NCBI GenBank assembly: GCA_008375315.1
Contig: CP032507.1
Location: 1-64,000 of the forward strand
Origin: Ectothiorhodospiraceae bacterium BW-2
GTDB taxonomy: Bacteria; Pseudomonadota; Gammaproteobacteria; Thiohalomonadales; Thiohalomonadaceae
Reading direction: 5' to 3'
DNA: 64,000 nt
Part shown: piece by piece, positions 7,153 to 26,468 of the stretch
How positions within the stretch are numbered: the first letter of the stretch is position 1
Layout: the number at the start of each line of letters is the position of its first letter
Program-made: the position numbers and the translations under genes
The notes under the pieces: generated by a model
Databases searched by the model: none
The model's input: only the letters and a program-made list of their open reading frames with translations
Told to the model about the DNA's origin: nothing

Positions 7153-7165
7153 TATAGTACACTAT
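7153..7165 (+). promoter_or_regulatory. Possible -10 box and operator upstream of the KfrA-like gene
   Basis: TATAGT overlaps a perfect 5+5 inverted repeat (ATAGT-AC-ACTAT) about 30 bp before the kfrA-like start, in an AT-rich divergent spacer. KfrA proteins are autoregulators binding such palindromes, so an operator is plausible. No convincing -35 box is seen. Confidence 0.35.
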
Positions 7166-7194
7166 TCGCCCCCCACCCTACAGGAGAGATCAAT

Positions 7195-10529: not shown

Positions 10530-13500
10530 TCAAAACAGCTCCACACTCCCCCGCTCACTCAAGGCATCCAACAACTGCTGCGTATCGCGACAGAGCTGCC
10601 GCTCACTCTGCTGCAGTAGTGCGACCCCTAGGGCGGTAAAGGGGGAGAGCCCATGGTTCTCTTGTAACTGCGCTATCTTAGCGCGAAGCTGACTATCGTC
10701 AGCTTTATCCTGCTTCGGCTCGGCTAAGGCCTCAATCTGCTGCTGTAGTAGCGCTACCCGCTCGGCTGAGTTGAGACTTTGTAGCTGTGCCGGTCTAATC
10801 ACCCGCCCTAAGTTGTAGTTCTGCCCTCGGAGATGGTGCGGCAGTTCAAATTTATGCCCTTGATCGACTAACGGTAATCCCTGCGTAAAGCAGATCGGCA
10901 CAATCGATCGGTTAAACTTAACCGCTCTATCGAGAATAAACGAACTCATCTGCGCGATCCCCTCTCCCTCGTACTGCTCTCGGGTACCGCCAACATGGAT
11001 AAAGAGCGACTGCTGCCGCTGCGTCATTGAGGAGAGACACTGATCGATAAGCACAGGTAGCTCGGCCGGGTTATCACGCTGAAAGTAGAGAATGTCGAGC
11101 GGATGCGACTCACCATAGAGAGTTTTCGCCCACTGACTCAACTTCCCTAACCAGTGGTCACGATTCTCCGCTTTCGAGAGCGTCGCTATCGGATAGCCAA
11201 AGAGGGCGTAGCTCACCACGACAAATAGGATCGACTCCACCGCGACCTGATGGTTAGCCAGATAGATGACCGGCCCTAGCTCGCTCAACTCGTTAAAGTC
11301 GGCCAGTTTCACTTGGGCGATAAAGCGATCACTCAGAACCAGCAGAAGATCGCTTAACAGCGTCTGTGCTACCCCCCGTTGCCGCAGTAGCGTCGGCAGA
11401 TCAAACGGATATCGCCGCAACGGTGTCAACGGGTAGAGGCGATACTCCCCCCGATGCTCTACCAGTGACAGGGCAAACTGCTGCTCTAAATAGCGCCCAT
11501 TTTCGATCAGTGAACTCTCTATCTCCACCTCTGCCGGATGGCACTGCCGCTCTGCTGCCACATACTCTTTAAAGAGAATGTGCGCCGTCTTTTGTGCCAC
11601 CGTGAGCCCCGCTTTTAGCCGATAGATAGACTCTAGCGTCCCAGGTAGCCAGCTACTCTGCTCAACCGTTGCCATCGGAAGTCGGTAGTACTGCTGCTCT
11701 GCGCTCAACTCGATCACTTTATGGGGCGGTAGCGGCTGCTGTTGCTTGATAAAGCGGTAGCGCTCCTCACCGCTCATCTGCTGGGTAATCCCTTTTGAGA
11801 CCAACACCTCAACTAGGCGAAAATAGCCGACAATCTGCTGTTGCTGTCGCAGCCAGATATCGATCTCAAGCAATCTCTCCCCTAGCTGGCCGACAAAACG
11901 CGACTCCACCGTGAGCTCACCGCTCTGCGGTAGCGCTAACAGTGTCAGATGACGCATCTGATAGGGGTAGGCGATTAGATCGGCGGCAATAGCGCCACAC
12001 CAGTGCTGAATATTGTAGTGCGGCACCGACTGTATCGCCCCATCTAGTAGCGCAAAACCGGTGCGACCGTGCGCTACCCCCCGCGACTGGGCGGTTATCG
12101 TCGCGGTAGCGCCATTACTACCTAAACAGTAGCGGGTTAAGAGCTGTAGCGCTGGCCCATGAAATAGCTCGCCCCTCTCATAGGGGAGTTCAGTCTCAAG
12201 ACCGTGCTGTAGCGCCGCGATAGTAGGCCACTTAGGGGGCTGGGTTAAACGCCCTATATCGCCACTAGCCGCTAAGGTTAGCGGCGGCTCTAGGAGTGGG
12301 TGGGCTTGGGCCTCATCGAAGCGAAACAGCTCAAACTCAACCCTATCGGTGCCCCTATCGTTCACGCTCACCTTCACCTCTCCCTCTATCTGTCTTGGCG
12401 GCTTCGCTCGCCTCGTTCGGGCAGGGGGGGTTAAAGCTAACCAGGCGTTGAGGAGAATTTGCTCACTATGGAGCCCCGTTTGACCTAAATCGATACCAGT
12501 TGCTGTCGCGGCTAGCTCGATGAGCCAGGTAAACGGCAGCGTCGGCAGGGTATAGGTGGGGCAGTGATCCCACACCCAAGGCGAACTCTCGGCATCGACA
12601 CGCCACGGATAGTAGTAGTGATATGTCGGCGGCGGCACTTTATTGAGCCGCATCCCGACTCGTGGCATCTCATAAATTTTTAGCCCATCGATCCAGACCT
12701 TCGCTTTGGCCCATAACTGATAGGTTAGCGCACTCTCTTGCGCCTCAAGTTGCTCCATATCGACCACAATTTTCCGATGATGGGGGGTAATTTGGCCACG
12801 GTAGTGCCACTCAACCGCCTCGGCGATGATTACCGGCTCAAAACGACCCCCACTCGCCACCCATTCAGGGTGGCTCAGTAGGATATAGAGCTGCATAAGC
12901 TGTAAAATCGCCTCAACTCCCAGCGACCCCGGTTGAACCGGATCTTGAAAAAAGTGCGCCTTAAAGAACCAGTCATCACTGTTAACACGCTTCTCACCAC
13001 GCAGGTAGCCTCTCCCCTGCTCACCAGCGGCCGCACTATAGTGGACTAGCCGATCTAACATCAGCAGCCTAGAGGCCGGTAGTGAGGGGCCTATGGAGTT
13101 AAAATAGTCGGCAGGATGTGTGGTCAGATCGATATCTAGGTTCGGTTCTAACGCCATCAAGTGCCGATCATTGGCGCTAATTATCAACCCCTTCTGCGCC
13201 AACATCGCCTCAGGGGGGAAGAAGCCAAAGGTGGTCTGGTAGCTATAGACCAGCTCGCCATTGGCGTAGGTTTTAACCTCAAACTGGTTAATGACCAAAC
13301 GGCCAGTGCGCGAATGGGAGGTTAAGATCACTTCGGTTCGCAGGGTATAGCGCCCCTGTTTGAGCTCAAAGTGCTGCACCGCCTCCAAGCCATCGAGATT
13401 GCGAAACAGCAGCTCCTCGTTTGCTAAGGCGCTATCACGACAGAAGAAGGCGATCCAGCCACACGGCTGTAGCGCAATCTCCATTAAGACGCAGTAGGGC

Positions 13501-14381
13501 ATGGTCGCGGTGCCGTTTTGACGAAAGAACCAGCTATCGGCGGCCACATCGTACTCTACCACGACCGAGGGGCGGTGATTAGGCTGACCAAACTCCGCCT
13601 CTAACGCCACAATACGGCTCATAAAGTGGTACGGCGGCCCCGGCAGTCGCGACGAACGCACCCCACGATTAAAGTGGGCAAATCGCGCACCAAAAGCATC
13701 GGTCGGCTTACCCCAAGCGCAACTGATGACCGACTTAAAATTAAAGGCAAACCCCTGCTCGTCATAACAAAATGGCGCGTTAGGGTTAGGATCGGCTATC
13801 GGGTGCTCTAACAGCGGCCAGTCAGGTACCAGCTCCACCCCTAACCGCTCACACAAAAAGGCTTTGCGGCCATCGACCGTACAGAGCAGGTGCGCGTAGA
13901 GGGTTAGGGTCGGCTCCAGCACGATCTCATCGACAAACAGCTCATAAACAAGCTGTTTCGATGCAGGCGTCACCTGCCCTCGACAGTGGAACCGGTAACG
14001 GTTACCAACCGCCGGTTGAAAACGCCAGCTATCGCGCTGCAGGGTATAGCCTAGCGCCACTAGATAGAACGACATCATCTGCAAACACCCCTCGGCCATC
14101 AGCGTGCCGGGCATACAGGGATCGTGATGGAAGTGGCCATTAAAGAACCACTCCTCCCCCGTGAGGTTAGAGACTGAACGCAGATAGCCGCGCCCAGCTG
14201 GGCCACCGTCGGTGGTGATCGCGCTAATGTCACCAATAAAGTTCATCGAGCCGGCAGCACTGCGGGGGGTGCGGGTATGGGTTTGGCTTAAATAGAACGC
14301 TTCACCAAAGCAGCCGACTAGATCGCCGGCGAGATAGCACTCAATCTCCTCGGACGAAAAGCTGTGTTGTTTGAGTGCCAC
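10530..14381 (-). CDS. pfaC: PfaC segment 3: hotdogs 2-4, PKS-type DH, acyltransferase
   Basis: This is the longest open segment, 1283 residues. FabA-like active-site blocks occur at GHFHHDPCMPGTLMAEG near residue 80 and at AHFFQDPVQPGSLGVEA near residue 470, with a degenerate hotdog (ATMPYCVLMEIALQ) between them. A PKS-type dehydratase follows (VWDHCPTYTLPTLPFTW, then ELFHGPALQ and LLDGAIQSV). The last ~250 residues are PlsC-like, with NHQVAVE in place of the usual NHxxxxD and the downstream block HVGGTREQYEGEG. The apparent ATG at 14381 is inside the gene; true continuity is with 14318-16792 through the G7 run at 14383-14389. Confidence 0.82.
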   Translation of the reverse strand: MALKQHSFSSEEIECYLAGDLVGCFGEAFYLSQTHTRTPRSAAGSMNFIGDISAITTDGGPAGRGYLRSVSNLTGEEWFFNGHFHHDPCMPGTLMAEGCLQMMSFYLVALGYTLQRDSWRFQPAVGNRYRFHCRGQVTPASKQLVYELFVDEIVLEPTLTLYAHLLCTVDGRKAFLCERLGVELVPDWPLLEHPIADPNPNAPFCYDEQGFAFNFKSVISCAWGKPTDAFGARFAHFNRGVRSSRLPGPPYHFMSRIVALEAEFGQPNHRPSVVVEYDVAADSWFFRQNGTATMPYCVLMEIALQPCGWIAFFCRDSALANEELLFRNLDGLEAVQHFELKQGRYTLRTEVILTSHSRTGRLVINQFEVKTYANGELVYSYQTTFGFFPPEAMLAQKGLIISANDRHLMALEPNLDIDLTTHPADYFNSIGPSLPASRLLMLDRLVHYSAAAGEQGRGYLRGEKRVNSDDWFFKAHFFQDPVQPGSLGVEAILQLMQLYILLSHPEWVASGGRFEPVIIAEAVEWHYRGQITPHHRKIVVDMEQLEAQESALTYQLWAKAKVWIDGLKIYEMPRVGMRLNKVPPPTYHYYYPWRVDAESSPWVWDHCPTYTLPTLPFTWLIELAATATGIDLGQTGLHSEQILLNAWLALTPPARTRRAKPPRQIEGEVKVSVNDRGTDRVEFELFRFDEAQAHPLLEPPLTLAASGDIGRLTQPPKWPTIAALQHGLETELPYERGELFHGPALQLLTRYCLGSNGATATITAQSRGVAHGRTGFALLDGAIQSVPHYNIQHWCGAIAADLIAYPYQMRHLTLLALPQSGELTVESRFVGQLGERLLEIDIWLRQQQQIVGYFRLVEVLVSKGITQQMSGEERYRFIKQQQPLPPHKVIELSAEQQYYRLPMATVEQSSWLPGTLESIYRLKAGLTVAQKTAHILFKEYVAAERQCHPAEVEIESSLIENGRYLEQQFALSLVEHRGEYRLYPLTPLRRYPFDLPTLLRQRGVAQTLLSDLLLVLSDRFIAQVKLADFNELSELGPVIYLANHQVAVESILFVVVSYALFGYPIATLSKAENRDHWLGKLSQWAKTLYGESHPLDILYFQRDNPAELPVLIDQCLSSMTQRQQSLFIHVGGTREQYEGEGIAQMSSFILDRAVKFNRSIVPICFTQGLPLVDQGHKFELPHHLRGQNYNLGRVIRPAQLQSLNSAERVALLQQQIEALAEPKQDKADDSQLRAKIAQLQENHGLSPFTALGVALLQQSERQLCRDTQQLLDALSERGSVELF

Positions 14382-17300
14382 CGGGGGGGAGGCAGCGGGG
14401 AGTCGGCATAGGTCGCCTCCTCAGCCCGCCACAATACCCCACTCGCCTCCTCTAGCTCTTGGCGGGTAAAGAAACCGGCTTGACCATGGCGCACCGAGAG
14501 CCGCTTTTGGCCATTGATATAGCAGTCGTAGTGGAAGAAGAAGAGTCGTATATCGCCACTTTGGGCGTGGCCATCGACACAGATTTGATAGTGTAGCCTC
14601 TCCCCTGCTCTGGGTAGATCGCCCAAAAATTGTAGCTCACACCCTAACAGACGGTAGGCGCGTTGTCCTTGATTGAGGCTATCGATACCGAGCCAAGAGA
14701 TGAGCAGTAGATCGGCCTGCCCCGATTCGATAAAGATACCGCCGGGCATCACGCCCTGGTGTAGATACCAGCTATCGTGCTTGACATCGGTTTCAGTCCA
14801 AATCGTCCCTAACCCCATCGACTGCGGTTCGGCATCGATACCGGTCACCCGATCACAGAGCAGTAGCGGCGGTTGCGGCATTCGCACCTGCACTAAATGG
14901 CGATCTTGGTCACTAAAGGCAGCACCAAAGAGGGTCGATATCTTCCCTGAGGCCAAAATCTCTAGATCTTGACGCGAAAAGGTGGGGCCTAGCGGTCGAT
15001 AGTCGTGTCGCTCTGCGGCTGTAGCTGGTAGTGGTAGTGGTAGTGGGGGTAGCCCCCTTAGCGGCAACAGCGTGCGCCGATAGAGCTCAAACTGCTGCTG
15101 CTGTAGCGCCAAAAAGTGCTGGTGGAGCTGACTCTGCTGCTGAAACAGCGTCGCTATCAGCACAGCTAGCGAGCCTGCCCCCGGCCGTCGCGATGGCAAC
15201 GGCGCTAAGGGGGGCAGTTTTAGCGCTGGAGCGGTTGGCATGGTCACCGTAGCTAGCGCCATCGCGGGATTAGGCGCTCTACAGTAGGCGGCGAGAGTCT
15301 CTGCCCAAGCCTCTGTGAGCAGCGGGGGGACGGGCGTTAGCGTCAGCGTTCGTTCTAATGCCGGCTGGTAGAGAGAGAACTGGTTAAGTTGCAGCGGCTG
15401 GCCGGCGCACCAGAGCTCCACAGTGTTGCGATAGAGCTGCGCGACACTATCACTTCCCACCTCATCCATCGCGATCGTTAACGAGTGGCGCAACTGCTGT
15501 GGCGACAAAATGTGCGCTATCGCCCGAGTTAATGAGTTGCGTGGCCCATGCTCAATAAAAATTCTCACCCCATCGGCAAAGGCCTGTCGGACACTCTTGC
15601 TAAAGTCGATAGTCACGCCGGCTTGACCGGTGAGCGCCTCGGCGACGCTAGCGCTCGTCGGCCGATAGGGGCCATTAAGATAGTTAGAGTAGAAGCGAAC
15701 GCGGCTCTGGGGCTGCACCGGACGGGTATGGAGCTGACGCCACAGCGGCTCAAAATCGCCCAACACCGGCGCATGGCAGGCCAACTCATGGCGCAAAGCG
15801 GTATGGCGCACCTTTGGCAGTCGGGCTAACAGCGCCTGACACGCACTCGCCTCCCCCGCCACCACACACTCGCTGTCGGAGAGGATAATCGTTAAGTAGA
15901 GCCGCTCATAGTCGGCCAATAGCGGTCTGACTTGGGCGGCATCGGTGTAGAGGATCCAGCTCTGCCACACCATAGGGCTCTCGGGGGCGATCCCCCAGTA
16001 GCGTTTAACGGCGCGATACTCCCCGGCTAACTCAGTTTGGTAGAGATTGGCTTGCCAAATCGCATCCAATAGCTGGCCGATATCGTCCCACACATCAAAC
16101 GCTAACAGGGCATTCGTCTCCCCCGATGAGAGTCCAAACGCCGCCTCCGGCGCCAAACCCCAAATTTGACGACTAATTAGCGCATGTAGCTGGGCCACAA
16201 AACTGCTGCCGATTAACTCGTTAAAGGGGCGACTCTCGCTCGACTCGCCACTCCAGCGCGGATAGAGCCAGCCGCCGTAGCGCTCTAGCTCGCCCCCAAA
16301 TCGTGCCGCTAGGGCGCGAACCAGTAGCGGATAGTCGGCCACCAACGACTCTGCCGCACCGCAATAGGCGGCGGCGGCACCGGTAAAGATGGCCGCCACC
16401 TCTCCGCTGAGGGGCGCAGGATAGAAACAGATCTGGTCAATCCAGCCACGGTCAGGTTGCCGCTGGGCTAGGTTGGCCAGAGCGCGCTGCTTGAGCCGCT
16501 GATAGTCGCTAAGATCGCGACAATAGAAGCCGCAGCGACACCCTCCCCCCCCCTCTTCACCCGGTTGTAGCGGTCGATCAGCCTCAAGTCGCTCTCTTAA
16601 CTGCTCAATAGTATCGGCGGCAAATAGCGCCAGTTGTGGCTGTGGTTTTAGGCTAAAAAGTAGCGGCAGGGCGCAGGTAGGTAGCGGTTGCGAGGCGCTT
16701 TGCAGTGGATTCTGCCCTCGAATCTGCGCTAATAGCGCTAAACTGGGGTGTAGCAGTGGCTCAACGAGCCGATTGCGACCTAGCAGCCCCACAGGGGGGG
16801 AGGCGGTGGCGAGCTTAGACTAAAGTCGGACGGTAGCAGGGTGAGATAGGGGAGCTGTCGTTGCTGCGCCACACTCGCCCGACACAATATCCACACCACC
16901 GCGCCATCGGTATCGGTATCATGGCTCGATAACACCTCATCGGCTATATCGATCACCCCGACAATGGCGCTCTCTAGCGCCCCACTACCTATCTGTTGCA
17001 GAGCGTAGTTTAGACTTACTGCCGCACTCTCTGCCGCTGCCGACAAGGTAAATCCTTCAGCGGTAAAGTGGTAGCGGTTATTGAGCCGATTGGCGGGAAT
17101 ATTGGGCATACACCCCACCACTCGCGCGGCTGTTAGCGCAGGATAGATCTGATCTTTTAGCGCCTTTAACGGCGCCTCGGCCAGAGTGATACCCGCCTGT
17201 TGCAGATAGTCGTTAAGGCGTAGTCGGAGTCCGACGCGATTAATCTCGGGGGCGACCTCCATGGCGATAAAGAGGCCAGTTTTCGCGCCATCTAACTGGG

Positions 17301-18909
17301 CTAGCAGCCGATGTTGGCTATCTAATAGCTCAAGTAGCAGCGTCTGCTGGGTTAAACACTGCGCTAGATCGTGCGGCGGAAAGCCGAGCGAGTGGCTACG
17401 CAGTCTAATCGAACTCATCTTCGGCTCAAACGGCTCAAGCGGCTGCTCGCGCTGGTGGAGCTCTTGTGCGAGCTCTGTTAGCGAACTGCGATTGCCATAG
17501 TTAGCCGCCATCGCCACTAGCGCCACCTCAATCGGCTGCCGTGGCGCTACTTTAGTCCCAACATACTCTAGCTGCTGAGGAAACTGCGCCGGATTCCACT
17601 CCTCTAAAATCAGATGGGCATTATTGCCACCAAAGCCGAAGTTATTGACCGCCGCCCGTCGCGGACTCTCTTCGGCAGGCCAGCTCAGCCGCTGGCTAGG
17701 CAGATAGAAGCGGGTCGCCGCTAGCTCGGGAGTCAGTTCGCTCGGTGGCGGCATATAGGGGAGCTGCTGCTGCCCAAACCCCTGTAGCACTTTAATGAGG
17801 CTAGCACCGCCCGAGGCGGTAATTAGGTGGCCGATATTGGCCTTCAGTGAGCCTATCGCCAAAGCTCTATGACGACCGAAAATCTCCGCTAGGCTGGCGA
17901 TCTCCACCGCATCACCGGTCGCGGTACCGGTCGCATGGCACTCAACGAAGCCAATCGAGGCCGGATCGATACCGCAGCTCGCATACGCCTGCTGCATCGA
18001 TACCACCTGGCCACGCTTAGCAGGCGAGAGAAACCCACCGCTTCGTCCATCATTAGAGAGACCGATGCCACGAATGAGGCCGATAATAGTATCGCCATGG
18101 TTAAGGGCATCCTCAAGCCGCTTAAGCGCCACCATCGCCACCCCTTCGGCGGGAAGCAGACCATCGGCATCCCGATGAAAGGGGCGCGACTGCCCAGAGG
18201 GCGAGAGCGCTTTTAACGCACTAAAACCGACATGGAGAAAGAGTGAATCGACATGGTTCACCCCACCGACTAGGAGTAGATCGGCCCGACCCTGATGGAG
18301 CTGATCGCAGGCGAGTTTCACCGCATAGAGGGTTGAGGCGCAGGCTGCATCGATAGAGAACGCCTCACCGCCGAGCCGTAACTGCTGTTTAATCAGCTGT
18401 GACGGTAGGCTCGAACCGTAGCGATTCGGAAAGAGGCCCGCTTCCGGCGGGGGGAACTTATCGGGCAGAAGCTGGTGTAGCGCCTGCTGCTCATAGAGCT
18501 GAGAGTGGCTAGGGGTCGGGTAGGAGAGATTGCCCAAAATCGTCGCGGTTTTATCCCGTAGCCTCTCGCTCACCCCCGCGACCTGATCCAAAAGCTGCTG
18601 TGCGGCGGTTAAACTCCATTGACAGAGCGGATCGAGATGGTTTAGCGCCGCCCTATCGCCCGTCAATCGCTCAGGGTGCCATGCAAACGATGTTACGTAC
18701 CCCCCTTGAGCGCAGTAGGCGTGATCGCCGCTCATCGCCGCAGCAGGGCGAACCACCTGGTCAGGTTCGAGACGCCAATACCCCGCCGGTACCTCCCCGA
18801 TCGCACTCTCCCCTTGAGCCACTAGCTGCCATAACTCTGCGCTAGTGTGGCAGCGCGGCAGGATTAGACTCTCGCCAACAATCGCAATCGCAGGCCAAGA
18901 GTCGCTCAT
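10530..18909 (-). CDS. pfaC: Pfa3/PfaC-type lipid synthase (composite of three segments)
   Basis: Reconstructed length is about 2790 residues. Domain order: ketosynthase; chain-length factor; acyltransferase-like; four FabA-type hotdogs, i.e. two double-hotdog dehydratases; a PKS-type dehydratase; a C-terminal PlsC-like acylglycerol-phosphate acyltransferase. This extends canonical marine PfaC (KS-CLF-DH-DH) and resembles myxobacterial Pfa3, where the fused acyltransferase is thought to place the finished chain on lysophosphatidate. The two internal breaks lie in 7-bp C runs (minus strand) where one extra base restores the frame, so the gene is probably intact in the organism. Its ATG overlaps the TGA of the upstream synthase. 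I see no fused phosphopantetheinyl transferase. Confidence 0.82.
14318..16792 (-). CDS. pfaC: PfaC segment 2: acyltransferase-like domain and first hotdog
   Basis: The first ~440 residues look like an acyltransferase domain with the nucleophile elbow changed to GLSSGE, and the C-terminal FIEHGPRNSLTRAI of malonyl/acyl transferases. A proline-rich linker then leads to the first FabA-like hotdog (GVMPGGIFIESGQADLL). The frame runs on to a false stop after RWHSNNTAFRPRR. In the correct frame the chain passes straight into segment 3. Confidence 0.78.
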   Translation of the reverse strand: MGLLGRNRLVEPLLHPSLALLAQIRGQNPLQSASQPLPTCALPLLFSLKPQPQLALFAADTIEQLRERLEADRPLQPGEEGGGGCRCGFYCRDLSDYQRLKQRALANLAQRQPDRGWIDQICFYPAPLSGEVAAIFTGAAAAYCGAAESLVADYPLLVRALAARFGGELERYGGWLYPRWSGESSESRPFNELIGSSFVAQLHALISRQIWGLAPEAAFGLSSGETNALLAFDVWDDIGQLLDAIWQANLYQTELAGEYRAVKRYWGIAPESPMVWQSWILYTDAAQVRPLLADYERLYLTIILSDSECVVAGEASACQALLARLPKVRHTALRHELACHAPVLGDFEPLWRQLHTRPVQPQSRVRFYSNYLNGPYRPTSASVAEALTGQAGVTIDFSKSVRQAFADGVRIFIEHGPRNSLTRAIAHILSPQQLRHSLTIAMDEVGSDSVAQLYRNTVELWCAGQPLQLNQFSLYQPALERTLTLTPVPPLLTEAWAETLAAYCRAPNPAMALATVTMPTAPALKLPPLAPLPSRRPGAGSLAVLIATLFQQQSQLHQHFLALQQQQFELYRRTLLPLRGLPPLPLPLPATAAERHDYRPLGPTFSRQDLEILASGKISTLFGAAFSDQDRHLVQVRMPQPPLLLCDRVTGIDAEPQSMGLGTIWTETDVKHDSWYLHQGVMPGGIFIESGQADLLLISWLGIDSLNQGQRAYRLLGCELQFLGDLPRAGERLHYQICVDGHAQSGDIRLFFFHYDCYINGQKRLSVRHGQAGFFTRQELEEASGVLWRAEEATYADSPLPPPRWHSNNTAFRPRRLSAISPAI
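16780..18909 (-). CDS. pfaC: PfaC segment 1: ketosynthase and chain-length factor
   Basis: The ketosynthase has cysteine in DAACASTLYA near residue 190 and the two histidines in HATGTATGD and ANIGHLITASGG. The following ~230 residues have the chain-length-factor signature (VVGCMPNIPANRLNNRYHF, then GFTLSAAAESAAVSLNYAL) without the catalytic cysteine. The start ATG overlaps the preceding TGA (ATGA). The segment ends in a false stop after the C7 run at 16794-16800 (plus-strand G7). Confidence 0.85.
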   Translation of the reverse strand: MSDSWPAIAIVGESLILPRCHTSAELWQLVAQGESAIGEVPAGYWRLEPDQVVRPAAAMSGDHAYCAQGGYVTSFAWHPERLTGDRAALNHLDPLCQWSLTAAQQLLDQVAGVSERLRDKTATILGNLSYPTPSHSQLYEQQALHQLLPDKFPPPEAGLFPNRYGSSLPSQLIKQQLRLGGEAFSIDAACASTLYAVKLACDQLHQGRADLLLVGGVNHVDSLFLHVGFSALKALSPSGQSRPFHRDADGLLPAEGVAMVALKRLEDALNHGDTIIGLIRGIGLSNDGRSGGFLSPAKRGQVVSMQQAYASCGIDPASIGFVECHATGTATGDAVEIASLAEIFGRHRALAIGSLKANIGHLITASGGASLIKVLQGFGQQQLPYMPPPSELTPELAATRFYLPSQRLSWPAEESPRRAAVNNFGFGGNNAHLILEEWNPAQFPQQLEYVGTKVAPRQPIEVALVAMAANYGNRSSLTELAQELHQREQPLEPFEPKMSSIRLRSHSLGFPPHDLAQCLTQQTLLLELLDSQHRLLAQLDGAKTGLFIAMEVAPEINRVGLRLRLNDYLQQAGITLAEAPLKALKDQIYPALTAARVVGCMPNIPANRLNNRYHFTAEGFTLSAAAESAAVSLNYALQQIGSGALESAIVGVIDIADEVLSSHDTDTDGAVVWILCRASVAQQRQLPYLTLLPSDFSLSSPPPPPLWGC

Positions 18910-19529: not shown

Positions 19530-22500
19530 TCTCCCCGCCCTGAGTGAAAGTCGGTTAGCGTGATCCCTCGATTAACACAAAACGACTCTAGCTCCACCGC
19601 CCCCCCTAAGCAGAGCTGACCGGCCCGCAAAAACCACTCAACCACCATCGCTGCCGGTACGACGACTCGATCTTTAATTTGGTGATCACTTAGCCAAGGC
19701 AGAACGGCTTGGCTCAGATAGAGCGATAACGCGCTCGGCTGACGGCGCTGCTTGAGTGCCCAGTTATCCATAGCGCCGCCAATCACCACCTCGACACAGC
19801 TCTCGACACTCTCGTGCAGCTCAGCCACAAAGGCCTCGACACCGGCATCGAGCGCCAGTAGCTCCACCCCCTGGGCGGCAAAGTGGGCTTTAAGTTGGGG
19901 CGAGACCATCCCCCCGCCCACGGCCCCCAGTTAATCGACTTCACCAGGCAGGGTTGGGCGGCGGCTAGGCGGCGATCACGCTCAAATTGGCACACTTTAT
20001 TGAGGACTTCGTTGGCCATGGCATAGTCGCTCTGGCCCCGATTACCGGTTCGTGCGGCGACAGATGAGAAGCAGCAGATAAGGGTCAGTGGATCGTCGCA
20101 GGTTAACCTTAATAGAGTGCGAAACCCCTCCACTTTGGTGTTAAAGACCTGATGAAACTGAGCATCGCTCTTAGCCTGAATTAACTTATCGGCCAACACC
20201 CCCGCCCCATGCACGATCCCACGAATCGCGCCCCACTCGGCCCGAATCGTGGTAAGAGCGTGCTCAACCGCCGCTCGATCACTAATATCGCAGCGAAAAT
20301 AGCGTACCGTTGCCCCAGTCTGCTCTAGCCGGTGTCGGTTACGCGCCATCTCGCGATTGGCGTGTATCGCCGCTAACTGTGATCTTAACTGCGTTGGGGT
20401 CAGCGACTCCCCCTTCGCTTTCGCCTGTTGCAACAGCCACTGCTGTAGGGCGGCATCGCTGGTGAGCCCCCTCGTCTCTAGGGCCTCCTCGCTAAAAGCA
20501 GAGCGGCCTAAAAGCGCCAATTTTAGCGGGATGTGTTGCGTGAGGGCGACCAGACAGTCGGCAGTCACCCCCCTTAGGCCGCCACTGACGATCCAAACAT
20601 CCCCGTCCTCTCTCGTCCCCGGCTTAGCGCTTCACTGGGGGAGTGGCATTAACGGGCTCTGGTAGCAGGTTCGCTGTCGTTCGGCATTATAGACCACCTC
20701 TAACTCATCTCCCCCTGCGGTTAACTCCGCAAAAAGGAGCGCCGCCGTCGTCTCGGCATCCAGCGACGCCTCAAAGGCGATACTTTTGAGGCCAACGCCA
20801 GACCACTCTTTATCGGCCGTCTTAATCAGCGCGGCTAATCCGGCCAGGTATGGCTGCTCGCTCTGATAGGCGCAGATCAGTAGCCCTGCCGGTGCGCGAG
20901 TGTGCGACTGAGATAACTGGTACGATTGAATGGTGTGGCGAGCTAAGGCAAAGGCGCGATAGTTGAGCGTGATCGCCTCGGTGTCGCTGTTATCAATAGC
21001 TAGCCCCTCCAGATAGATAACGGCTTTACAGGGGCGTGCCATCGCGGCGGCATAGTCGAGCAGTTCGGCCTCAAGCCCTGCTGCAAGCAGTTTTGCGACT
21101 AAAGCGACCCCCACGCCGCGGCTATCGGCAACCACACTCAACGGCGTCGCCGCGAGTAGATCGGTAAGCGCAAAACCGATTAAAGGGGTTAGTCTCAGGG
21201 TGACAGGATATCTATACGCTTTTTTTTTTGTCACTGCCGCCGGCAAATTCGATAATTTCACCTAAGGTATTCATCGCCGCCAGTTGGGTCGTATCGGCAC
21301 CATGAAGGGCGGGGATCTGCTCTTGAAGTGCCGATAGAATTTCGACCCGCTTAATCGAATCGATGCCCAGCTCCGACTCCATATCGAGCTCTAGGCCGAT
21401 CATCTCCTCTGGATAGCCGGTCTTTTCGGCCACCACGGTTAGGAGTAGCGGTTTAATATCGATCGCAATCTTATCGACCGCAGCCTCCGCTTCGAGTGGC
21501 GCTGGAGCCACTGGCGGGGGGGAGCGGGTGGCGGCGCTAACGGTACGGCATCACCAGCCGGGGGTGGCGGCCGCGCTCGTCCGCCAACAGCGGGTCGGGG
21601 AGGTGGAGGAGCCGGTATGGCCGTTTGCGTCGGGGCAGCGCCCGCCGCGACCCCGACTAACGAGCTCAGTAGCTGTTGGGTCGCCTGTAGATAGCCTTGA
21701 TGGCTCTGAGCTAGCGTCTGCTGGAACGCCTGTTGTGCCTGAAAGGCGCTCTGCTGAATCGCCTCAATCGTAGTTAGCCACTCGGCCGATAGTGCAGCCT
21801 CGGGTACAGCGCGGATCGGCGCTGGCTGAGTTGAGTTGACGGCTTGGGGTTGGGGATGTGGTGGAGTTGAGTTCATAGTCACAGTCTGCTTTAACGGGTT
21901 AATAAAGTGGGTGGGGGTCGATAGGAGTGCGGTTTTAGCGGTCTCATTCGCTTTAGGAAGTGCGGCGCTCCCCCCCTTCGGTGGATAGGGTTTGCCAAAA
22001 TTGGCGCCATTAATCATGACTGTCGCTTGGGAGCCTTCACGCTGCGTTAATGGTCGCTCTTCGGGCGCAAAATCGTTCCAAAGAGAGCTCAGAGAGATCG
22101 GCACCCCGAGGGCGTGTAGCTGTGCCATCGCCCGCCAAAAGGCGGAGACCGAATCGACCTTCGGCCCTAAATCGAGCGAGATGGCGTTGGCCGCCTCACC
22201 TAGGGTATCGCGCACCATCTGGCTTAACGCTCTGCCCGGGCCGGCCTCAATGAAGGTGGTCACACCGCTCTGATGCATCTGCTCTAACTCAGCCATAAAG
22301 TGGACCTGATTGGCCAGTTGTGCGCTCAGTTCGGCCTTAATGTCGCTGCTCTTATCGGGATAGAGCTTGCCGGTTAAGTTAGAGAAGATCGGGACTCGGG
22401 GGCGGTGAAATCGCTTTGGGTGGAGACATTTGGCCAACTCATCTTCGGCGGCGGCAACCCAGTCGGAGTGAAAAGCGGTCGGGACATTGAGACGCCGAAA

Positions 22501-24835
22501 GCGGAGCTGCTGCTGCGTTAACAGCGCCTCAAAGGTAGCTAGGTCACTGACCGCCCCGGTCACGACGCTCTGCTTACGGCTATTGATGTTGGCGATAGAG
22601 AGAGAGCCCTCAAACGACTGTAGTAACGCCTCAAGCTGTGCGGGTGAGCAAAAGATGGCGCTCATGCCCCCCCTCGCTCCGCCCCCCTGCCGTTGACTGA
22701 CTGCCGCCATCAATTCGGCCCGTTTGCAGGAGATGGCCAGCATCTCGTCAGCCGAATCGATAACACCGGCAGCATAGAGTGCCGGTATCTCGCCATAGGA
22801 GTGGCCGGCGTAGCTGTCGGGTTTAAGCCCTAGCTGCTGCAGTAGCGCTAAATGTGAGAGGGAGAGCAGCCCGATGGCGGGTTGAATCACTTCGATTTGC
22901 TCCAATCGCTGCTGCTGCTCGGCTAGCTCACGCTCACTAAAGACGGGGATAGGATAGACAAGATCGTGCAGCCTCTGGCCAGAGAGGCTAAGATCACCAT
23001 AGCTATCCCACGGTTGGCGGGCCGCCTCAAACTGACAGAGAAGATCGCGCCCCATATTGAGATAGTGCCCCCTTGACCGGCAAAGAGTAGCGCTACCCCC
23101 CCCTGCCGCTCCCTCTGATGCAGCCACACCGCATTGGGAATCGTCAACGACTCTCCCTGCTCTATGGCTTTATGCTGGTGCTGTAGCTGCTCGATTCGCT
23201 GCCGCAACTCCTCGCTAGAGCTAGCGACTAGGCTTAACCGTGTTCGGTGGTGCGGTTCAACGCTCTGGTGTGACTCTCTCGCTAGGGTGGTGAGTGAGAT
23301 TGAGGGTGAGTTAAGCCGCCGCTGAAGCTGGGTTAGCTGCTGCTGGAGCGCTGTCGGCGAGGTGGCCGAAAGGGTCACTACTATCTGCTGCTGTTGGCGC
23401 TGGCTATAGAGGCGGGGCGGTTTATGGTGGGGGTCGAGGTACTCCTCAACACTCAAATGAAAGTTACTGCCCCCAAAACCAAACGAGCTGACCGAAGCGC
23501 GTCTCGGCTGGGTCGGCTTGGCGATCCAGGGGCGAGTTTCGCTATTGAGGTAGAGCGGGCTCTGCTCAATCTCCATCCTCTCATTGGGCTGCTCCACTTT
23601 AATCGTGCGCGGTAGCACCTTATGGTGGAGTGCTAAGACTATTTTTAGCAGACTGACCGCGCCGGCAGTCGATTTGGTATGGCCAATTTGGGACTTAATC
23701 GAGCCGAGGGCACAATACTGTTTACCGCGCGACTTGGTGGTCTCATCATTGGCAAAGGCGAGCTTGAGCCCCTCAAACTCAGCCGCATCTCCCGCTTTCG
23801 TTCCGGTGCCATGCGCCTCAATGAGCTCGACACTACCTAAACCGTAGTCGAGTGGTTGGTAGGTGCGACTGATCGCTTTCGACTGGCCAGCGGCGTCAGG
23901 GGCGTAGATCGATCTGCTTTTGCCATCTGACGATGAGCCGCAGCTATTAAGAACCGCGAAGATGTTATCGCCATCGCGCTTGGCATCCGCTAGACGACGC
24001 AGGGCAAACAGAACAACCCCTTCACCCAAAATAGTGCCATCGGCGCTGTTCGCGAAGGGGCGAATATCTCCGCTCGGGGAGAGGGCTGGGGTCTTGGTAA
24101 AGCACATATACATGAAGATATTGTTTAAGGCATCGACCCCCCTGAAATCACCAGATCGGTATGGCCGTTCTGTAGCTCATGCATCGCCATATTGATCGCA
24201 GCGAGGCTACTGGCGCAAGCGGCATCGGTCACAAAGTTACACCCCCCTAAATTGAGCTTATTGGCGACCCGTCCTGCGACCACATTCGAGAGCAGCCCGG
24301 GGAAGGTGTTTTCTGTCCAGTCGGGATACTCCCGCTCGATATGACGGCAGATATGATCAATCTCACTCTCTGCTAGGCCATACTCCCGTAGCACCTTCCT
24401 CCAGACCGGTTTTTGAATTTTGGCCGCCATCAGCTCCTGCATCTCACTACCGGCGGCGACACCTAGAATAATGCCGATATTGTTTAGTTTCACCTTCTGC
24501 TGCTGTACGCTCCGTGTCGTCCTTAGTAGCTCTTTGGCGGCAATGAGGGCGAGTAGCTGGTTGGTATCGGTCGCGGTTAGTGAGTTAGGCGGCATGCTAA
24601 ATTCGATCGGATCGAATGGAATATCAGTAAGAAACCCGCCGCTTTTGGTGTAGAGTTTGGCAAACTCTTTTGAGTCCGGCTCGTAGTAGTCATCGATTAA
24701 CCAGTGGCTCGGTGGTACTTCGGTAATCAGATCGGTGCCATCGAGAATGTGGCGCCACGCCTCTTCGGGGGTGGTCGAGCCGGGTAAGAGTGACGATAGC
24801 GCCACGACCGCAATCGGCGTCTGCTGTTTTGGCAT
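18906..24835 (-). CDS. pfaA: Pfa2/PfaA-type lipid synthase (composite of eight segments)
   Basis: Reconstructed length is about 1975 residues with domain order KS-MAT-ACP-KR-DH, the PfaA/Pfa2 arrangement. It would carry out condensation, malonyl loading, keto reduction and dehydration for a Pfa-type polyunsaturated or related long-chain lipid, with chains held on the ACP and reduced by PfaD. Only one ACP is visible; characterised PfaA proteins usually have four to nine. Six junctions need one extra base in a C/G run, one lies in an A10 run, and one is an in-frame TGA at 20632-20634. The start is 13 bp after pfaD, so the three genes form an operon. PfaB and PfaE homologues are absent here. Confidence 0.82.
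19484..19921 (-). CDS. pfaA: PfaA segment 7: end of KR and first hotdog of DH
   Basis: The segment continues the ketoreductase (GGGMVSPQLKAHFAAQGVEL) and enters the dehydratase at SLYLSQAVLPWLSDHQIKDR, where the histidine of the hotdog fold is seen, and VVPAAMVVEWFLRAG. The junction with the previous segment is the six-base C run at 19910-19915. Confidence 0.75.
   Translation of the reverse strand: MGGGMVSPQLKAHFAAQGVELLALDAGVEAFVAELHESVESCVEVVIGGAMDNWALKQRRQPSALSLYLSQAVLPWLSDHQIKDRVVVPAAMVVEWFLRAGQLCLGGAVELESFCVNRGITLTDFHSGRGEWYQIRLKQRGSSAI
19783..20568 (-). CDS. pfaA: PfaA segment 6: catalytic ketoreductase
   Basis: This is the Rossmann-fold catalytic half of the KR. Upstream of the ATG in the same frame lies the nucleotide-binding motif VSGGLRGVTADC. 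Within it are GIVHGAGVLADKLIQ, the serine in CFSSVAARTGNRGQ and the tyrosine in SDYAMANEVLNK. The frame opens after the TGA at 20632-20634, so coding actually starts before 20568. Confidence 0.8.
   Translation of the reverse strand: MTADCLVALTQHIPLKLALLGRSAFSEEALETRGLTSDAALQQWLLQQAKAKGESLTPTQLRSQLAAIHANREMARNRHRLEQTGATVRYFRCDISDRAAVEHALTTIRAEWGAIRGIVHGAGVLADKLIQAKSDAQFHQVFNTKVEGFRTLLRLTCDDPLTLICCFSSVAARTGNRGQSDYAMANEVLNKVCQFERDRRLAAAQPCLVKSINWGPWAGGWSRPNLKPTLPPRGWSYWRSMPVSRPLWLSCTRVSRAVSRW
20632..21261 (-). CDS. pfaA: PfaA segment 5: structural part of the ketoreductase
   Basis: This is the non-catalytic half of the KR: TPLSVVADSRGVGVALVAKL, then a short Rossmann-like region and AGLAALIKTADKEWSG. 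It ends at an in-frame TGA after LMPLPQ, while the same frame continues into the catalytic half. The entry from the ACP crosses a T10 run (21220-21229 on the plus strand). Confidence 0.72.
   Translation of the reverse strand: MKLSNLPAAVTKKKAYRYPVTLRLTPLIGFALTDLLAATPLSVVADSRGVGVALVAKLLAAGLEAELLDYAAAMARPCKAVIYLEGLAIDNSDTEAITLNYRAFALARHTIQSYQLSQSHTRAPAGLLICAYQSEQPYLAGLAALIKTADKEWSGVGLKSIAFEASLDAETTAALLFAELTAGGDELEVVYNAERQRTCYQSPLMPLPQ
21212..21511 (-). CDS. pfaA: PfaA segment 4: single acyl carrier protein domain
   Basis: The ~80-residue ACP has the phosphopantetheine attachment site as LGIDSIKRVEILSAL, the DSI form typical of Pfa ACPs. A Pro/Ala-rich linker precedes it and a lysine run follows. 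No second ACP is present on either side in any frame. Confidence 0.82.
   Translation of the reverse strand: MAPAPLEAEAAVDKIAIDIKPLLLTVVAEKTGYPEEMIGLELDMESELGIDSIKRVEILSALQEQIPALHGADTTQLAAMNTLGEIIEFAGGSDKKKSV
21439..23127 (-). CDS. pfaA: PfaA segment 3: malonyl-CoA acyltransferase and linker
   Basis: The MAT domain has its serine elbow in SYAGHSYGEIPALYAAG, then VTGAVSDLATFEALL and the histidine in VPTAFHSDWVAAAE. A ~150-residue Gln/Ala/Pro-rich linker ends the segment. The first ~20 residues from the apparent ATG are out of frame; the true coding joins at the C5 run 23068-23072. Confidence 0.8.
   Translation of the reverse strand: MAASEGAAGGGSATLCRSRGHYLNMGRDLLCQFEAARQPWDSYGDLSLSGQRLHDLVYPIPVFSERELAEQQQRLEQIEVIQPAIGLLSLSHLALLQQLGLKPDSYAGHSYGEIPALYAAGVIDSADEMLAISCKRAELMAAVSQRQGGGARGGMSAIFCSPAQLEALLQSFEGSLSIANINSRKQSVVTGAVSDLATFEALLTQQQLRFRRLNVPTAFHSDWVAAAEDELAKCLHPKRFHRPRVPIFSNLTGKLYPDKSSDIKAELSAQLANQVHFMAELEQMHQSGVTTFIEAGPGRALSQMVRDTLGEAANAISLDLGPKVDSVSAFWRAMAQLHALGVPISLSSLWNDFAPEERPLTQREGSQATVMINGANFGKPYPPKGGSAALPKANETAKTALLSTPTHFINPLKQTVTMNSTPPHPQPQAVNSTQPAPIRAVPEAALSAEWLTTIEAIQQSAFQAQQAFQQTLAQSHQGYLQATQQLLSSLVGVAAGAAPTQTAIPAPPPPRPAVGGRARPPPPAGDAVPLAPPPAPPRQWLQRHSKRRLRSIRLRSILNRYS
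22923..24113 (-). CDS. pfaA: PfaA segment 2: C-terminal ketosynthase and KS-AT linker
   Basis: This carries the second half of the KS, with both histidines (EAHGTGTKAGD and SQIGHTKSTAGA) and the closing SSFGFGGSNFHLSVEE. The linker runs to the start of the acyltransferase (VALLFAGQGG), where the frame is lost. The last ~45 residues before the stop are therefore spurious. Confidence 0.82.
   Translation of the reverse strand: MYMCFTKTPALSPSGDIRPFANSADGTILGEGVVLFALRRLADAKRDGDNIFAVLNSCGSSSDGKSRSIYAPDAAGQSKAISRTYQPLDYGLGSVELIEAHGTGTKAGDAAEFEGLKLAFANDETTKSRGKQYCALGSIKSQIGHTKSTAGAVSLLKIVLALHHKVLPRTIKVEQPNERMEIEQSPLYLNSETRPWIAKPTQPRRASVSSFGFGGSNFHLSVEEYLDPHHKPPRLYSQRQQQQIVVTLSATSPTALQQQLTQLQRRLNSPSISLTTLARESHQSVEPHHRTRLSLVASSSEELRQRIEQLQHQHKAIEQGESLTIPNAVWLHQRERQGGVALLFAGQGGTISIWGAIFSVSLRRPANRGIAMVILASLARGCTILSILSPSLVSVS
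24125..24835 (-). CDS. pfaA: PfaA segment 1: N-terminal ketosynthase
   Basis: The start matches PfaA (TPIAVVALSSLLPGSTTPEE) and the segment includes the KS nucleophile in TDAACASSLAAINMA near residue 210. It stops after LVISGGSMP because the C6 run at 24137-24142 lacks one base; adding it gives GGVDALNNIFMYMCF, the expected continuation. Confidence 0.85.
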   Translation of the reverse strand: MPKQQTPIAVVALSSLLPGSTTPEEAWRHILDGTDLITEVPPSHWLIDDYYEPDSKEFAKLYTKSGGFLTDIPFDPIEFSMPPNSLTATDTNQLLALIAAKELLRTTRSVQQQKVKLNNIGIILGVAAGSEMQELMAAKIQKPVWRKVLREYGLAESEIDHICRHIEREYPDWTENTFPGLLSNVVAGRVANKLNLGGCNFVTDAACASSLAAINMAMHELQNGHTDLVISGGSMP

Positions 24836-24848
24836 CTTGTTGTCGTTC

Positions 24849-26468
24849 CTAAACCGTCATCGGTTGCGGTTGATAGTGGAGCTGGTGCATAGCCACCGGA
24901 ACCCCATAAGTTCGGCACTGCTGTGCCCGAGTATAGAGTGCCGCCCCTTCGAGTAGATTCAGGGCGACTTGAGCAATATGGCGGTTGGCTAGCGGCTCTA
25001 AAAAGGAGCCGGCAACCCAGCGGTTAAAGGCACCGAGCGCAGGCCCGCACCAAATTTGATAATCGAGTGTCCGTGCGCTATCGCCCTGTAGCGCCCACTG
25101 GCTGCTCTTGCCTAGATACCAGCGAAACAGTAGCGCCATCTTATATTTGGGGCTCTCGTTAGCCCGCTGTAGCTCTCTTGGATCTAGCTGTTGAAAGTAG
25201 TCGCAGGTGGCGCTCCAGATCTGGGGTAGGCTTTGGCGAAATATCTTCTGCTCTAGCTCGGTACGAATCTCAGCCGGTAGCTGTTCAATCGAGCTATAGC
25301 GGTGGTAGATCTCCTGTAGGCGGTTACCACGCATCCCCATCATCGTCCCCTTTTTCAGCACCTGAACCTTGCCGCCAAGCTCAAACATATCGGCAGAGGG
25401 GGTGGTGATAGTGTCGGCGATGTCGGCGCTAGCTAGCAGGGTTTTGGCCTCATTCGATAGCGCCGACTCAACTGTCGCTTGGTGGACTGAACCGAGCAGC
25501 ACATAGGAGGCGCCAAGGGTAAAGGCAGCGGCAATCGCCTGTGGCGTCCCCAGACTACCGGCCGCACCTAATCGCACCGGAGTCGCGAAGTTGTATTGGC
25601 GCTGAAGCTGATCTCTAACCATGGCAGTGGCCCCGAACAGACTGTTGAGGGGACGCGAATCGGTGTGGCCACCGGAGTCTGACTCGACAGTTAAATCTTC
25701 TGCTAACGGCACCTGTGCGGCTAGCTCGGCCTGCTGCGGAGTAATCGCCCCCGAGGCGACCAGCTCCTGTAGCATCTTCGTCGGCGCAGGCTGCATGAAG
25801 TGGGCTGCAACCTCAGGGCGGGAGACTTTGGGAAAGAGGTAGTTTTGGCGCCGAATCACGCCCGACTCATCACGATAGAGACCAAGGCAGACATAGCGGG
25901 TTAGGGCGCGATTGCTCCCCATAAATGCCGCCGCCGAGACTCGACGCACCCCTAATGCCAGATAGAGATCGACTAGCCGCTCCTCCTGTTCAGGGGTCGC
26001 AGGGGTGTGAATTAGGTTAACGCCCCAGCTCGCGCCCAAGGGGGTAAGCGCTGTGGCAATCTCGATAAGCGCCGCCCGAATCGTCTCAGTCGCTAATCCT
26101 GCCGAACCGAAAAAGCCTAAGGCACCGATTTTGCCCAGTTCAATGACCATCGCCGCAGAGGCGATCCCCCGCGCCATCGCGCCGCCTACATAGGCGAAAC
26201 GGCAGTGGTGCGCGGCTAAAAAGTGTCGATCCCCTAACCATTCGGGATAGAGTGGTGGTAAAGTACCGATCAACTCCCCCTCGGTTGGCGTTAGGTGAGC
26301 CTGTTGCGACAGCCCCATTAGCTGTTCATCACGATGGTAGAGAATATCAGTCCTCTCCCTAAATCGATAAACACACTGTTCAATCATGGGTAATGAGTAT
26401 GCACAACTCGCTAAACTTGCCGCCATCAATGCTGCCTTGTGTGGGTAAAGCGGTGGAGCATACAGCAA
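24849..26468 (-). CDS. pfaD: PfaD-type trans-acting enoyl reductase
   Basis: The 539-residue protein matches PfaD, an FMN enoyl reductase of the nitronate-monooxygenase TIM-barrel family that acts in trans on Pfa megasynthases. Visible motifs are YVGGAMARGIASA near residue 95, GFFGSAGLATETIRAAL, VESDSGGHTDSRPL near 265, and RLGAAGSLGTPQAIAAAF, with the long C-terminal helical part (MGMRGNRLQEIYHRYSS). It is the first gene of the operon, as in myxobacterial pfa1, whereas marine clusters place pfaD last. The frame offers only TTG at 26468; a GAGGAGG ~30 bp upstream suits a start in a neighbouring frame, so the first residues are uncertain. Confidence 0.9.
   Translation of the reverse strand: MLYAPPLYPHKAALMAASLASCAYSLPMIEQCVYRFRERTDILYHRDEQLMGLSQQAHLTPTEGELIGTLPPLYPEWLGDRHFLAAHHCRFAYVGGAMARGIASAAMVIELGKIGALGFFGSAGLATETIRAALIEIATALTPLGASWGVNLIHTPATPEQEERLVDLYLALGVRRVSAAAFMGSNRALTRYVCLGLYRDESGVIRRQNYLFPKVSRPEVAAHFMQPAPTKMLQELVASGAITPQQAELAAQVPLAEDLTVESDSGGHTDSRPLNSLFGATAMVRDQLQRQYNFATPVRLGAAGSLGTPQAIAAAFTLGASYVLLGSVHQATVESALSNEAKTLLASADIADTITTPSADMFELGGKVQVLKKGTMMGMRGNRLQEIYHRYSSIEQLPAEIRTELEQKIFRQSLPQIWSATCDYFQQLDPRELQRANESPKYKMALLFRWYLGKSSQWALQGDSARTLDYQIWCGPALGAFNRWVAGSFLEPLANRHIAQVALNLLEGAALYTRAQQCRTYGVPVAMHQLHYQPQPMTV

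What the first reader, a model, noticed from the sequence alone, without database searches (positions are those of the whole stretch)
10530..26468. Pfa-type polyunsaturated/secondary lipid synthase with myxobacterial-like layout
The operon is pfaD-pfaA-pfaC with a PlsC-like acyltransferase fused to PfaC and a PKS-type dehydratase added, whereas marine gammaproteobacteria use pfaA-B-C-D without that fusion. This points to a distinct synthase type, possibly transferred, making a lipid other than EPA or DHA. Domain recognition is direct; product and origin are inference.
Basis: partly seen in the sequence, partly recalled or inferred. Interest (0 to 1): 0.78.

Follow-up and report, generated by a model that had tools for sequence, protein, structure and literature searches.

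The report
Broken gene cluster for polyunsaturated lipids
This stretch holds genes for a known type of enzyme that builds long unsaturated fatty acids, but the two largest genes are split by many small breaks, so the bacterium most likely can no longer make the lipid.

Summary
The layout is real: on the minus strand lie pfaD (24849-26468), pfaA (18906-24835: KS-MAT-ACP-KR-PKS-type DH) and pfaC (10530-18909: KS-CLF-AT-FabA-like hotdogs-PKS-type DH-PlsC-like AGPAT). This domain string is in print for the Pfa1-Pfa2-Pfa3 synthases of Aetherobacter and Minicystis. pfaD first with a fused PfaBC is 'Type L' of Shulse and Allen 2011, which already lists a gammaproteobacterium.

Two points change the reading. 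First, pfaA and pfaC are broken by eight frame breaks and one in-frame stop; pfaD is open. Seven breaks lie at G or C runs, one at an A run. Of 829 such coding runs in a 10% sample of the genome, 822 are not near a frame break, so a general sequencing artefact is unlikely; a local one is not excluded. Catalytic motifs survive, so the loss looks recent. Second, the tree does not point to myxobacteria: PfaD plus KS group (100/100) with a gammaproteobacterial MAG, Pelagicoccus and Mucilaginibacter.

A side result: 18 of 30 relative loci examined, from seven phyla by record title, carry AGPAT on PfaC, which two papers call special to myxobacteria. Verdict: most likely a recently decayed member of a known synthase type.

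The parts
24849..26468 (-). pfaD (pfa1): enoyl reductase, open, 539 aa
   Evidence: TIGR02814 571 bits over cut-off 449; the only match of this protein in the genome
18906..24835 (-). pfaA (pfa2), broken: KS 23471-24835, MAT about 21954-23049, one ACP 21215-21535, KR about 19726-20600, PKS-type DH about 18947-19700
   Evidence: Pfam and NCBIfam hits on the pieces; profile hits on the joined reading
10530..18909 (-). pfaC (pfa3), broken: KS 17554-18903, CLF 16819-17508, AT2 15419-16618, FabA-like hotdogs 12627-14968, PKS-type DH4 11517-12566, AGPAT 10557-11516; start codon overlaps the pfaA stop (ATGA)
10533..11420 (-). PlsC-like AGPAT domain fused to the PfaC C-terminus; NHQxxxE motif kept, EGTR motif reads GGTR
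   Evidence: PF01553 25.5 bits; motif alignment; AlphaFold2 pLDDT 91; PlsC 5kym_A Z 14.2
24137..24142 (-). pfaA frame break 1, at a G run (inside KS)
23064..23072 (-). pfaA frame break 2, at a G run (start of MAT)
21516..21522 (-). pfaA frame break 3, at a C run before the ACP (assigned by reading; the frame model puts it at 21545)
21217..21229 (-). pfaA frame break 4, at an A10 run after the ACP
20632..20634 (-). pfaA in-frame stop in the linker before KR
19908..19915 (-). pfaA frame break 5, at a G run (end of KR)
19499..19504 (-). pfaA frame break 6, at a G run (inside DH)
16794..16803 (-). pfaC frame break 1, at a C run (after CLF)
14383..14391 (-). pfaC frame break 2, at a C run (after the first FabA-like hotdog)
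   Evidence: beyond the two truncated PfaC queries
8480..10506 (+). IS607-type element (MerR/resolvase gene plus TnpB-like gene); the TnpB-like ORF ends 23 bases before the pfaC stop, tail to tail
   Evidence: Pfam Resolvase/MerR and Cas12f1-like_TNB
27726..29811 (-). IS with 12-base perfect inverted ends and DDE transposase 27859-29652, apparently inserted in a second DUF5692 gene
   Evidence: ten copies with identical protein in the genome, this one included

Best explanation
A recently inactivated Pfa (PUFA / secondary-lipid) synthase of the Type L, Pfa1-Pfa2-Pfa3 layout. When intact, such a synthase would extend malonyl units on the PfaA ACP (KS1/MAT, KS2/CLF, AT2), reduce with KR and PfaD, dehydrate and isomerise with the FabA-like and PKS-type DHs, and pass the finished chain through the fused AGPAT to lysophosphatidic acid. 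Here pfaA and pfaC have lost their frames, mostly by one-base slips at G/C runs, so no full-length PfaA or PfaC and no product is expected. Shown: anatomy, breaks, their closeness to runs, the open control genes, tree position. Inferred: chemistry (from the literature on Pfa1-3), loss of product, recency, past transfer.
For: Domain strings. Breaks and stop seen in the three frames and against four PfaA and two truncated PfaC homologues. A frame model trained on 400 kb of the genome gives ten breaks in the cluster at its lenient setting: the eight, and two at gene junctions; at -14 it gives six of the eight plus one junction, at -18 five. By the lenient model 8 of 56 coding G/C runs of 5 or more in pfaA+pfaC lie within 20 bases of a break (seven breaks; one has two runs near it), against 7 of 829 in the sample (Fisher p 7e-7; runs of 6 or more: 4 of 23 against 5 of 262, p 0.003) and 2 of 300 in five regions around other megasynthase genes. 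The seven other KS matches lie in open frames of 419-2975 aa. Of the 30 best PfaC matches in relatives, 28 lie in frames of 2071-3155 aa, one of them with stops reported. Codon signal of the pieces is in the range of open genes and conserved sites are kept (KS1 4 changed of 123, MAT 2/47, KR 1/38, KS2 1/68, FabA1 0/38), so the loss is recent. A full-length mutS match and a mutL match are present. Mobile elements flank both sides. Inactivation of a pfa cluster by frameshift and nonsense changes has been reported in an industrial Saccharopolyspora strain (PMC3359211, passages).
Against: Nine lesions with well-kept catalytic motifs are also what a local sequence error would give; seven breaks look like one-base losses in runs, a common error of some long-read methods (recalled). 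No reads and no second strain were available. The codon signal of the pieces (0.039-0.084 per base) is mostly below the sample median of 0.080, so it does not exclude some older decay. The frame model was trained on the sample it was compared with, and the choice of run for break 3 is by reading.
Confidence: 0.72

Rival explanations
1. The genes are open in the organism and the breaks are a local assembly or base-calling error; it is then an ordinary working Type L synthase.
For: Seven of eight breaks read as one-base losses at G/C runs; catalytic motifs and conserved sites kept; only one in-frame stop.
Against: 822 of 829 sampled coding runs and 298 of 300 runs in five other megasynthase regions are not near a frame break; one of the few there was looked at and is a gene junction. 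pfaD and the flanking genes are open, and four near-identical tandem genes are resolved nearby. An error confined to these two genes is hard to explain, and the in-frame stop needs a second cause.
Confidence: 0.2
2. Broken on paper but still productive: slippage of polymerase or ribosome at the runs, or run-length switching in the population, restores some full-length protein.
For: Breaks sit at homopolymer runs and the protein sequence between them is conserved.
Against: Eight breaks and a stop in two genes would all have to be bypassed, so the yield would be negligible. No support was sought by experiment.
Confidence: 0.05
3. A cluster recently transferred from myxobacteria.
For: Same domain string as Pfa1-3 of Minicystis (PMC6731297); GC 57.3% against 52.7% in the sample; mobile elements at both sides.
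Against: 0 of 13 Myxococcota rows fall in the window's 100/100 clade; a clade with five of them is rejected (AU p 0.001; the five were named after the tree was seen); sampled stretches span GC 47-58%. Warning: the window row is long (0.93) and of unusual make-up.
Confidence: 0.03

Closest known systems
Myxobacterial PUFA synthase Pfa1-Pfa2-Pfa3 (Aetherobacter fasciculatus, Minicystis rosea; PMC6731297, PMC4882568, PMC8436480, passages read)
   Same: Gene order ER, then KS-AT-ACP-KR-DH1, then KS-CLF-AT2-DH2-DH3-DH4-AGPAT; DH4 as in M. rosea; PPTase encoded elsewhere (one PPTase match at 648 kb here; Sfp-type by my reading).
   Different: pfa2 and pfa3 equivalents broken; gammaproteobacterial host; the PfaD+KS tree places it away from the Myxococcota rows used.
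Type L secondary-lipid synthase of Shulse and Allen 2011 (PMC3098273, section 5 parts 1-2 read)
   Same: pfaD at the 5' end, fused PfaBC ending in an acyltransferase; members in Actinobacteria, Deltaproteobacteria and Gammaproteobacteria (Saccharophagus).
   Different: Broken; AT2 and DH4 are not in the printed Type L string [KS-CLF-DH2-AT].
Type A/B Pfa synthases (Shewanella, Moritella; same paper)
   Same: Same core domains.
   Different: pfaA-B-C-D order and a separate PfaB; no AGPAT in the printed domain lists.
Gammaproteobacteria MAG NP948 cluster (L008/L175)
   Same: Nearest row by path in the tree; first FabA-like hotdog of PfaC 74% identical; AT2 and AGPAT present.
   Different: Open frames, four ACPs, no DH4 found.

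Membership tests
Pfa / secondary-lipid synthase | PfaD-type enoyl reductase | tested here: met
   TIGR02814 571 bits, over cut-off
Pfa / secondary-lipid synthase | PfaA KS groups with Pfa KS domains, not ordinary type I PKS | tested here: met
   Best NCBIfam match of the pieces is TIGR02813; inside the PfaA KS set, with the PKS row of G001 outside (one ordinary PKS row only, on a long branch)
Pfa / secondary-lipid synthase | At least one KS, ACP and KR domain (tandem ACPs usual, not required by Shulse and Allen) | tested here: met
   One ACP here. Of 17 relative loci with a readable PfaA, 4 also show one (L177, L181, L186, L194), three of them with PfaA split near the ACP, so collapse in drafts is possible
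Type L / Pfa1-3 layout | Order pfaD-pfaA-pfaC with the AT inside PfaC | tested here: met
Type L / Pfa1-3 layout | C-terminal AGPAT on PfaC | tested here: met
Type L / Pfa1-3 layout | KS phylogeny within Type L reference sequences | tested here: inconclusive
   No reference sequence of a Type L member named in the paper was in the set; 49 rows, the window included, were used
Working (functional) Pfa synthase | Open reading frames for all three proteins | tested here: not met
   pfaA and pfaC broken
Cluster of myxobacterial origin | Clade with Myxococcota rows | tested here: not met
PlsC-type acyltransferase (AGPAT) | PlsC fold and H-x4-D/E motif | tested here: met
   Z 14.2 to 5kym_A; N-H-Q-x3-E invariant in 16 of 16 rows
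Pfa / secondary-lipid synthase | Long-chain lipid product | not testable with these tools
   needs lipid analysis

The most novel reading that the evidence does not exclude
The cluster is a revertible off state: slips at G/C runs in a type I megasynthase act as a many-site mutational switch, and the protein sequence stays under selection because some cells, or slippage at the runs, still give full-length enzyme. This is a reading for a later test, not a result.
Probability: 0.04. Interest if true: 0.7.

Novelty: new member of a known kind. Interest (0 to 1): 0.3.

Why it matters
It corrects an appealing reading: a striking synthase layout is here most likely a dead or dying cluster, and its layout is a known type. 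The side result has some use: AGPAT on PfaC was seen in 18 of 30 relative loci examined (chosen by similarity, not at random, several cut at contig ends), in seven phyla by record title. Two papers report this fusion as confined to, or a unique feature of, (terrestrial) myxobacteria (PMC4882568, PMC8436480, passages read). Open clusters in isolates, such as those of Paenibacillus curdlanolyticus (L189) and Acanthopleuribacter pedis (L176), are the ones to test for direct transfer of the finished chain to phosphatidic acid.

Tried and rejected
General homopolymer error: made unlikely by the run counts and the open frames around the other KS matches; whether each of those genes is whole from end to end was not tested. 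Over the 400 kb sample the frame model gives 88 breaks at -10 and 36 at -14, of which 5 and 2 have a G/C run of six or more within 25 bases; many of the 36 look like gene overlaps, but they were not sorted one by one. Of 17 model breaks in the five control regions one has a run of five within 20 bases, and it is the junction of an NRPS gene with the next gene. Loss of mismatch repair: not supported; mutS matches over its full length, mutL is a 553 aa frame matched over model positions 1-331. ACP collapse in assembly: not settled. Old decay: no excess of changed conserved sites, though the codon signal is mostly below the sample median. Neighbouring genes as part of the pathway: among 98 loci (open frames of 200+ aa; some loci are duplicates) NTE-patatin had one hit (31%), the ABC transporter two (28-29%), the SDR two (25-27%) and DUF5692 none, so no conserved link. 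16S to name the organism: no match; class inferred as Gammaproteobacteria because a genome marked same class shares its contig (35,989 bases) and match positions with the named Methylococcales MAG L013. Plasmid megablast of window 7000-31000: no match. tblastn: 24 plasmid records hold a PfaD-like protein, all under 60% identical. A search for papers on broken pfa clusters (15 of 46 shown) listed PMC3359211, which reports one in an industrial Saccharopolyspora strain (passages).

Limits: the first KS tree contains some PfaC KS rows where PfaA lay outside the locus; filters by identity. In one search actinobacterial rows were cut to 7 and loci without both domains were left out; the window row is long and of unusual make-up. 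Break positions are good to a few bases. DH4 and AT2 rest on alignment to relatives, not on Pfam cut-offs. That LpxM has a catalytic Glu (E127) is read from the title of 5knk; the role of HX4D in PlsC is recalled. The label IS607 is recalled from domain content.
Full report
What was checked. The window is bases 1-64000 of a single-contig 4.07 Mb genome, 99.7% complete. It is a gammaproteobacterium: a genome that the tool marks as same class shares its 35,989-base contig and match positions with the named Methylococcales MAG L013. The species could not be named.

Anatomy. On the minus strand lie pfaD (24849-26468), pfaA (18906-24835) and pfaC (10530-18909), with an ATGA overlap between pfaA and pfaC. 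PfaD scores 571 bits, over cut-off; PfaA is the best NCBIfam match for the KS, MAT and KR pieces, each below the whole-protein cut-off. PS-DH follows KR. PfaC holds KS, CLF, a PfaB-type AT, FabA-like hotdogs, a PKS-type DH and a C-terminal PlsC-like acyltransferase. The AGPAT is marginal by Pfam (21.7 bits in the whole ORF, 25.5 alone, cut-off 23). Its AlphaFold2 model (pLDDT 91, 16 rows) has one Foldseek match under E 0.001, human GPAT1. The structural aligner ranks T. maritima PlsC first (Z 14.2, 193 residues, 3.7 A), and the first eleven rows are PlsC, GPAT or PatA. N-H-Q-x3-E is invariant in 16 of 16 rows. The window's EGTR motif reads GGTR; of the relatives that cover it most read EGTR, with other letters in L113, L117, L121 and L170.

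The genes are broken. Stop-to-stop mapping puts pfaA in a series of segments over three frames and pfaC in three segments. Four homologous PfaA and two truncated PfaC proteins align across the segments with frame changes; the last pfaC break (near 14389) is beyond those PfaC queries and rests. Reading the junctions puts seven of eight breaks at G or C runs of 5 to 7 bases and one at an A10 run; an in-frame stop lies in the linker before KR.

Is it a sequencing artefact? A coding-frame model was trained on twenty 20-kb stretches (400 kb, about 10% of the genome). In the cluster its lenient setting (-10) gives ten breaks: the eight, and two at the gene junctions. At -14 it gives six of the eight plus one junction, at -18 five. 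With the lenient setting 8 of 56 coding G/C runs of five or more in pfaA+pfaC lie within 20 bases of a break, against 7 of 829 in the sample (Fisher p 7e-7). The eight runs belong to seven breaks, and for break 3 the model's nearest run is not the one chosen by reading. For runs of six or more the counts are 4 of 23 against 5 of 262 (p 0.003). The other KS genes are a second control: seven further KS matches lie in open frames of 419 to 2975 aa. In the five regions around six of them, 2 of 300 coding runs are near a break, and of 17 model breaks one has a run of five within 20 bases; that one is the junction of an NRPS gene with the next gene. Seven open frames of 1000+ aa there carry 195 runs; they were chosen for being open, so the p value of that call (5e-6) is only indicative. 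A general error is therefore unlikely; a local one remains possible.

How old is the loss? At sites conserved in 95% of the other rows the window is not unusual: KS1 4 changed of 123, MAT 2 of 47, KR 1 of 38, KS2 1 of 68, FabA1 0 of 38, FabA2 1 of 17, FabA3 0 of 10; pfaD itself has 8 of 128, rank 3 of 83. KS, MAT, AT and DH motifs are kept. The codon signal of the pieces (0.039-0.084 per base) is like that of pfaD (0.059) and of the nine window genes scored (0.012-0.075), inside the 5-95% range of sampled long ORFs (0.030-0.104) but mostly below their median of 0.080. So either the loss is recent or the sequence is locally wrong. I put 0.72 on recent decay and 0.20 on local error.

Surroundings. 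A TnpB-like gene of an IS607-type element ends 23 bases before the pfaC stop. Behind pfaD lie two DUF5692 genes, the second apparently split by an IS with 12-base perfect ends whose protein has ten identical copies in the genome, this one included. NTE-patatin, ABC transporter and SDR neighbours have only one or two weak matches each near pfaD in 98 relative loci. One PPTase match was found in the genome, Sfp-type by my reading.

Relatives and origin. The order pfaD then a large pfaA then pfaC is seen in many of the 80 named loci. A careful tree of PfaD+KS (49 rows, 970 columns) puts the window in a five-row clade (100/100) with the Gammaproteobacteria MAG NP948, Pelagicoccus and two Mucilaginibacter; 0 of 13 Myxococcota rows are inside. 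A clade of the window with five Myxococcota rows is rejected (p 0.001; chosen after seeing the tree), window plus NP948 alone is not (p 0.18). In the class, 12 of 369 genomes, the window's own included, match the PfaC C-terminal part at 1e-20. In the family 0 of 19 others do at 1e-10, and 1 of 19 has a PfaD match that sits beside PKS-like frames. This patchiness fits transfer followed by loss, or many losses; the data do not separate them.

Domain strings across 30 relative loci (chosen from hits, some cut at contig ends): AGPAT in 18, and AT2, DH4 and AGPAT together in 8 (L170, L177, L184-L189; in L170 over two frames). By record title AGPAT carriers fall in Pseudomonadota, Myxococcota, Acidobacteriota, Bacillota, Planctomycetota, Verrucomicrobiota and Actinomycetota; one (L170) is unnamed. 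Most are MAGs, so single records may be misbinned, but the two Paenibacillus and Acanthopleuribacter are isolates by title.

Comparison with the literature. PMC6731297 (passages) gives Pfa1 ER; Pfa2 KS1-AT1-ACP-KR-DH1; Pfa3 KS2-CLF-AT2-DH2-DH3-(DH4)-AGPAT, with DH4 from Minicystis rosea and product shifts when DH4 is moved. PMC3098273 (section 5, parts 1-2) defines Type L and lists Saccharophagus. PMC4882568 and PMC8436480 (passages) give the AGPAT fusion as confined to, or a unique feature of, (terrestrial) myxobacteria; the table above does not fit that, though the second paper's figure legend also names relatives in Streptomyces, Azospirillum and Tahibacter. PMC13291983 (passages) has no occurrence of AGPAT. 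PMC3359211 (passages) reports a pfa cluster inactivated by frameshift and nonsense changes in an industrial strain. Searches on these points.

Conclusion. The described layout is real and of a known type. The likely state is a recently decayed cluster; the product, if any ever was, cannot be told from sequence.

Noticed in passing
G000:C1 about 214,600-218,200 (L142): Part of a 1959 aa open frame with RpoB C-terminal motifs followed by RpoC N-terminal-like motifs: a second, fused beta-beta' RNA-polymerase-like protein far from the normal rpoB at 1.122 Mb (1201 aa of it seen).
   Followed up: no
window 49573-52152, minus strand: Four tandem genes for near-identical coiled-coil proteins that differ mainly in the number of short heptad-like repeats (VDKRFEQ-like).
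   Followed up: partly
window 27726-29811: IS with DDE transposase apparently inserted in a DUF5692 gene; ten copies with identical protein in the genome, this one included.
   Followed up: partly
window 500-2400, plus strand: HTH/DUF6399 transposase-like reading with in-frame stops, apparently a dead IS.
   Followed up: partly
window 3681-8265: 701 aa protein with two AAA ATPase stretches next to a phage-type integrase and a KfrA-like gene.
   Followed up: no
G000:C1 1.50, 1.71, 2.30, 2.98 (two) and 3.77 Mb: Six other large KS-bearing open frames (1338-2975 aa); the one at 2.30 Mb lies beside an NRPS frame with an aminotransferase domain.
   Followed up: partly
L104 (G000:C1:3350001-3370000), minus strand: Repeat-rich protein region with six model frame breaks not at G/C runs of five or more.
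   Followed up: no
AGPAT domains of PfaC, all 16 rows of alignment A1: The motif is H-x4-E, not H-x4-D, in 16 of 16 rows.
   Followed up: partly
L165 (G023): A gammaproteobacterial pfa cluster with eight FabA-like hotdogs in one frame, i.e. a doubled DH block.
   Followed up: no
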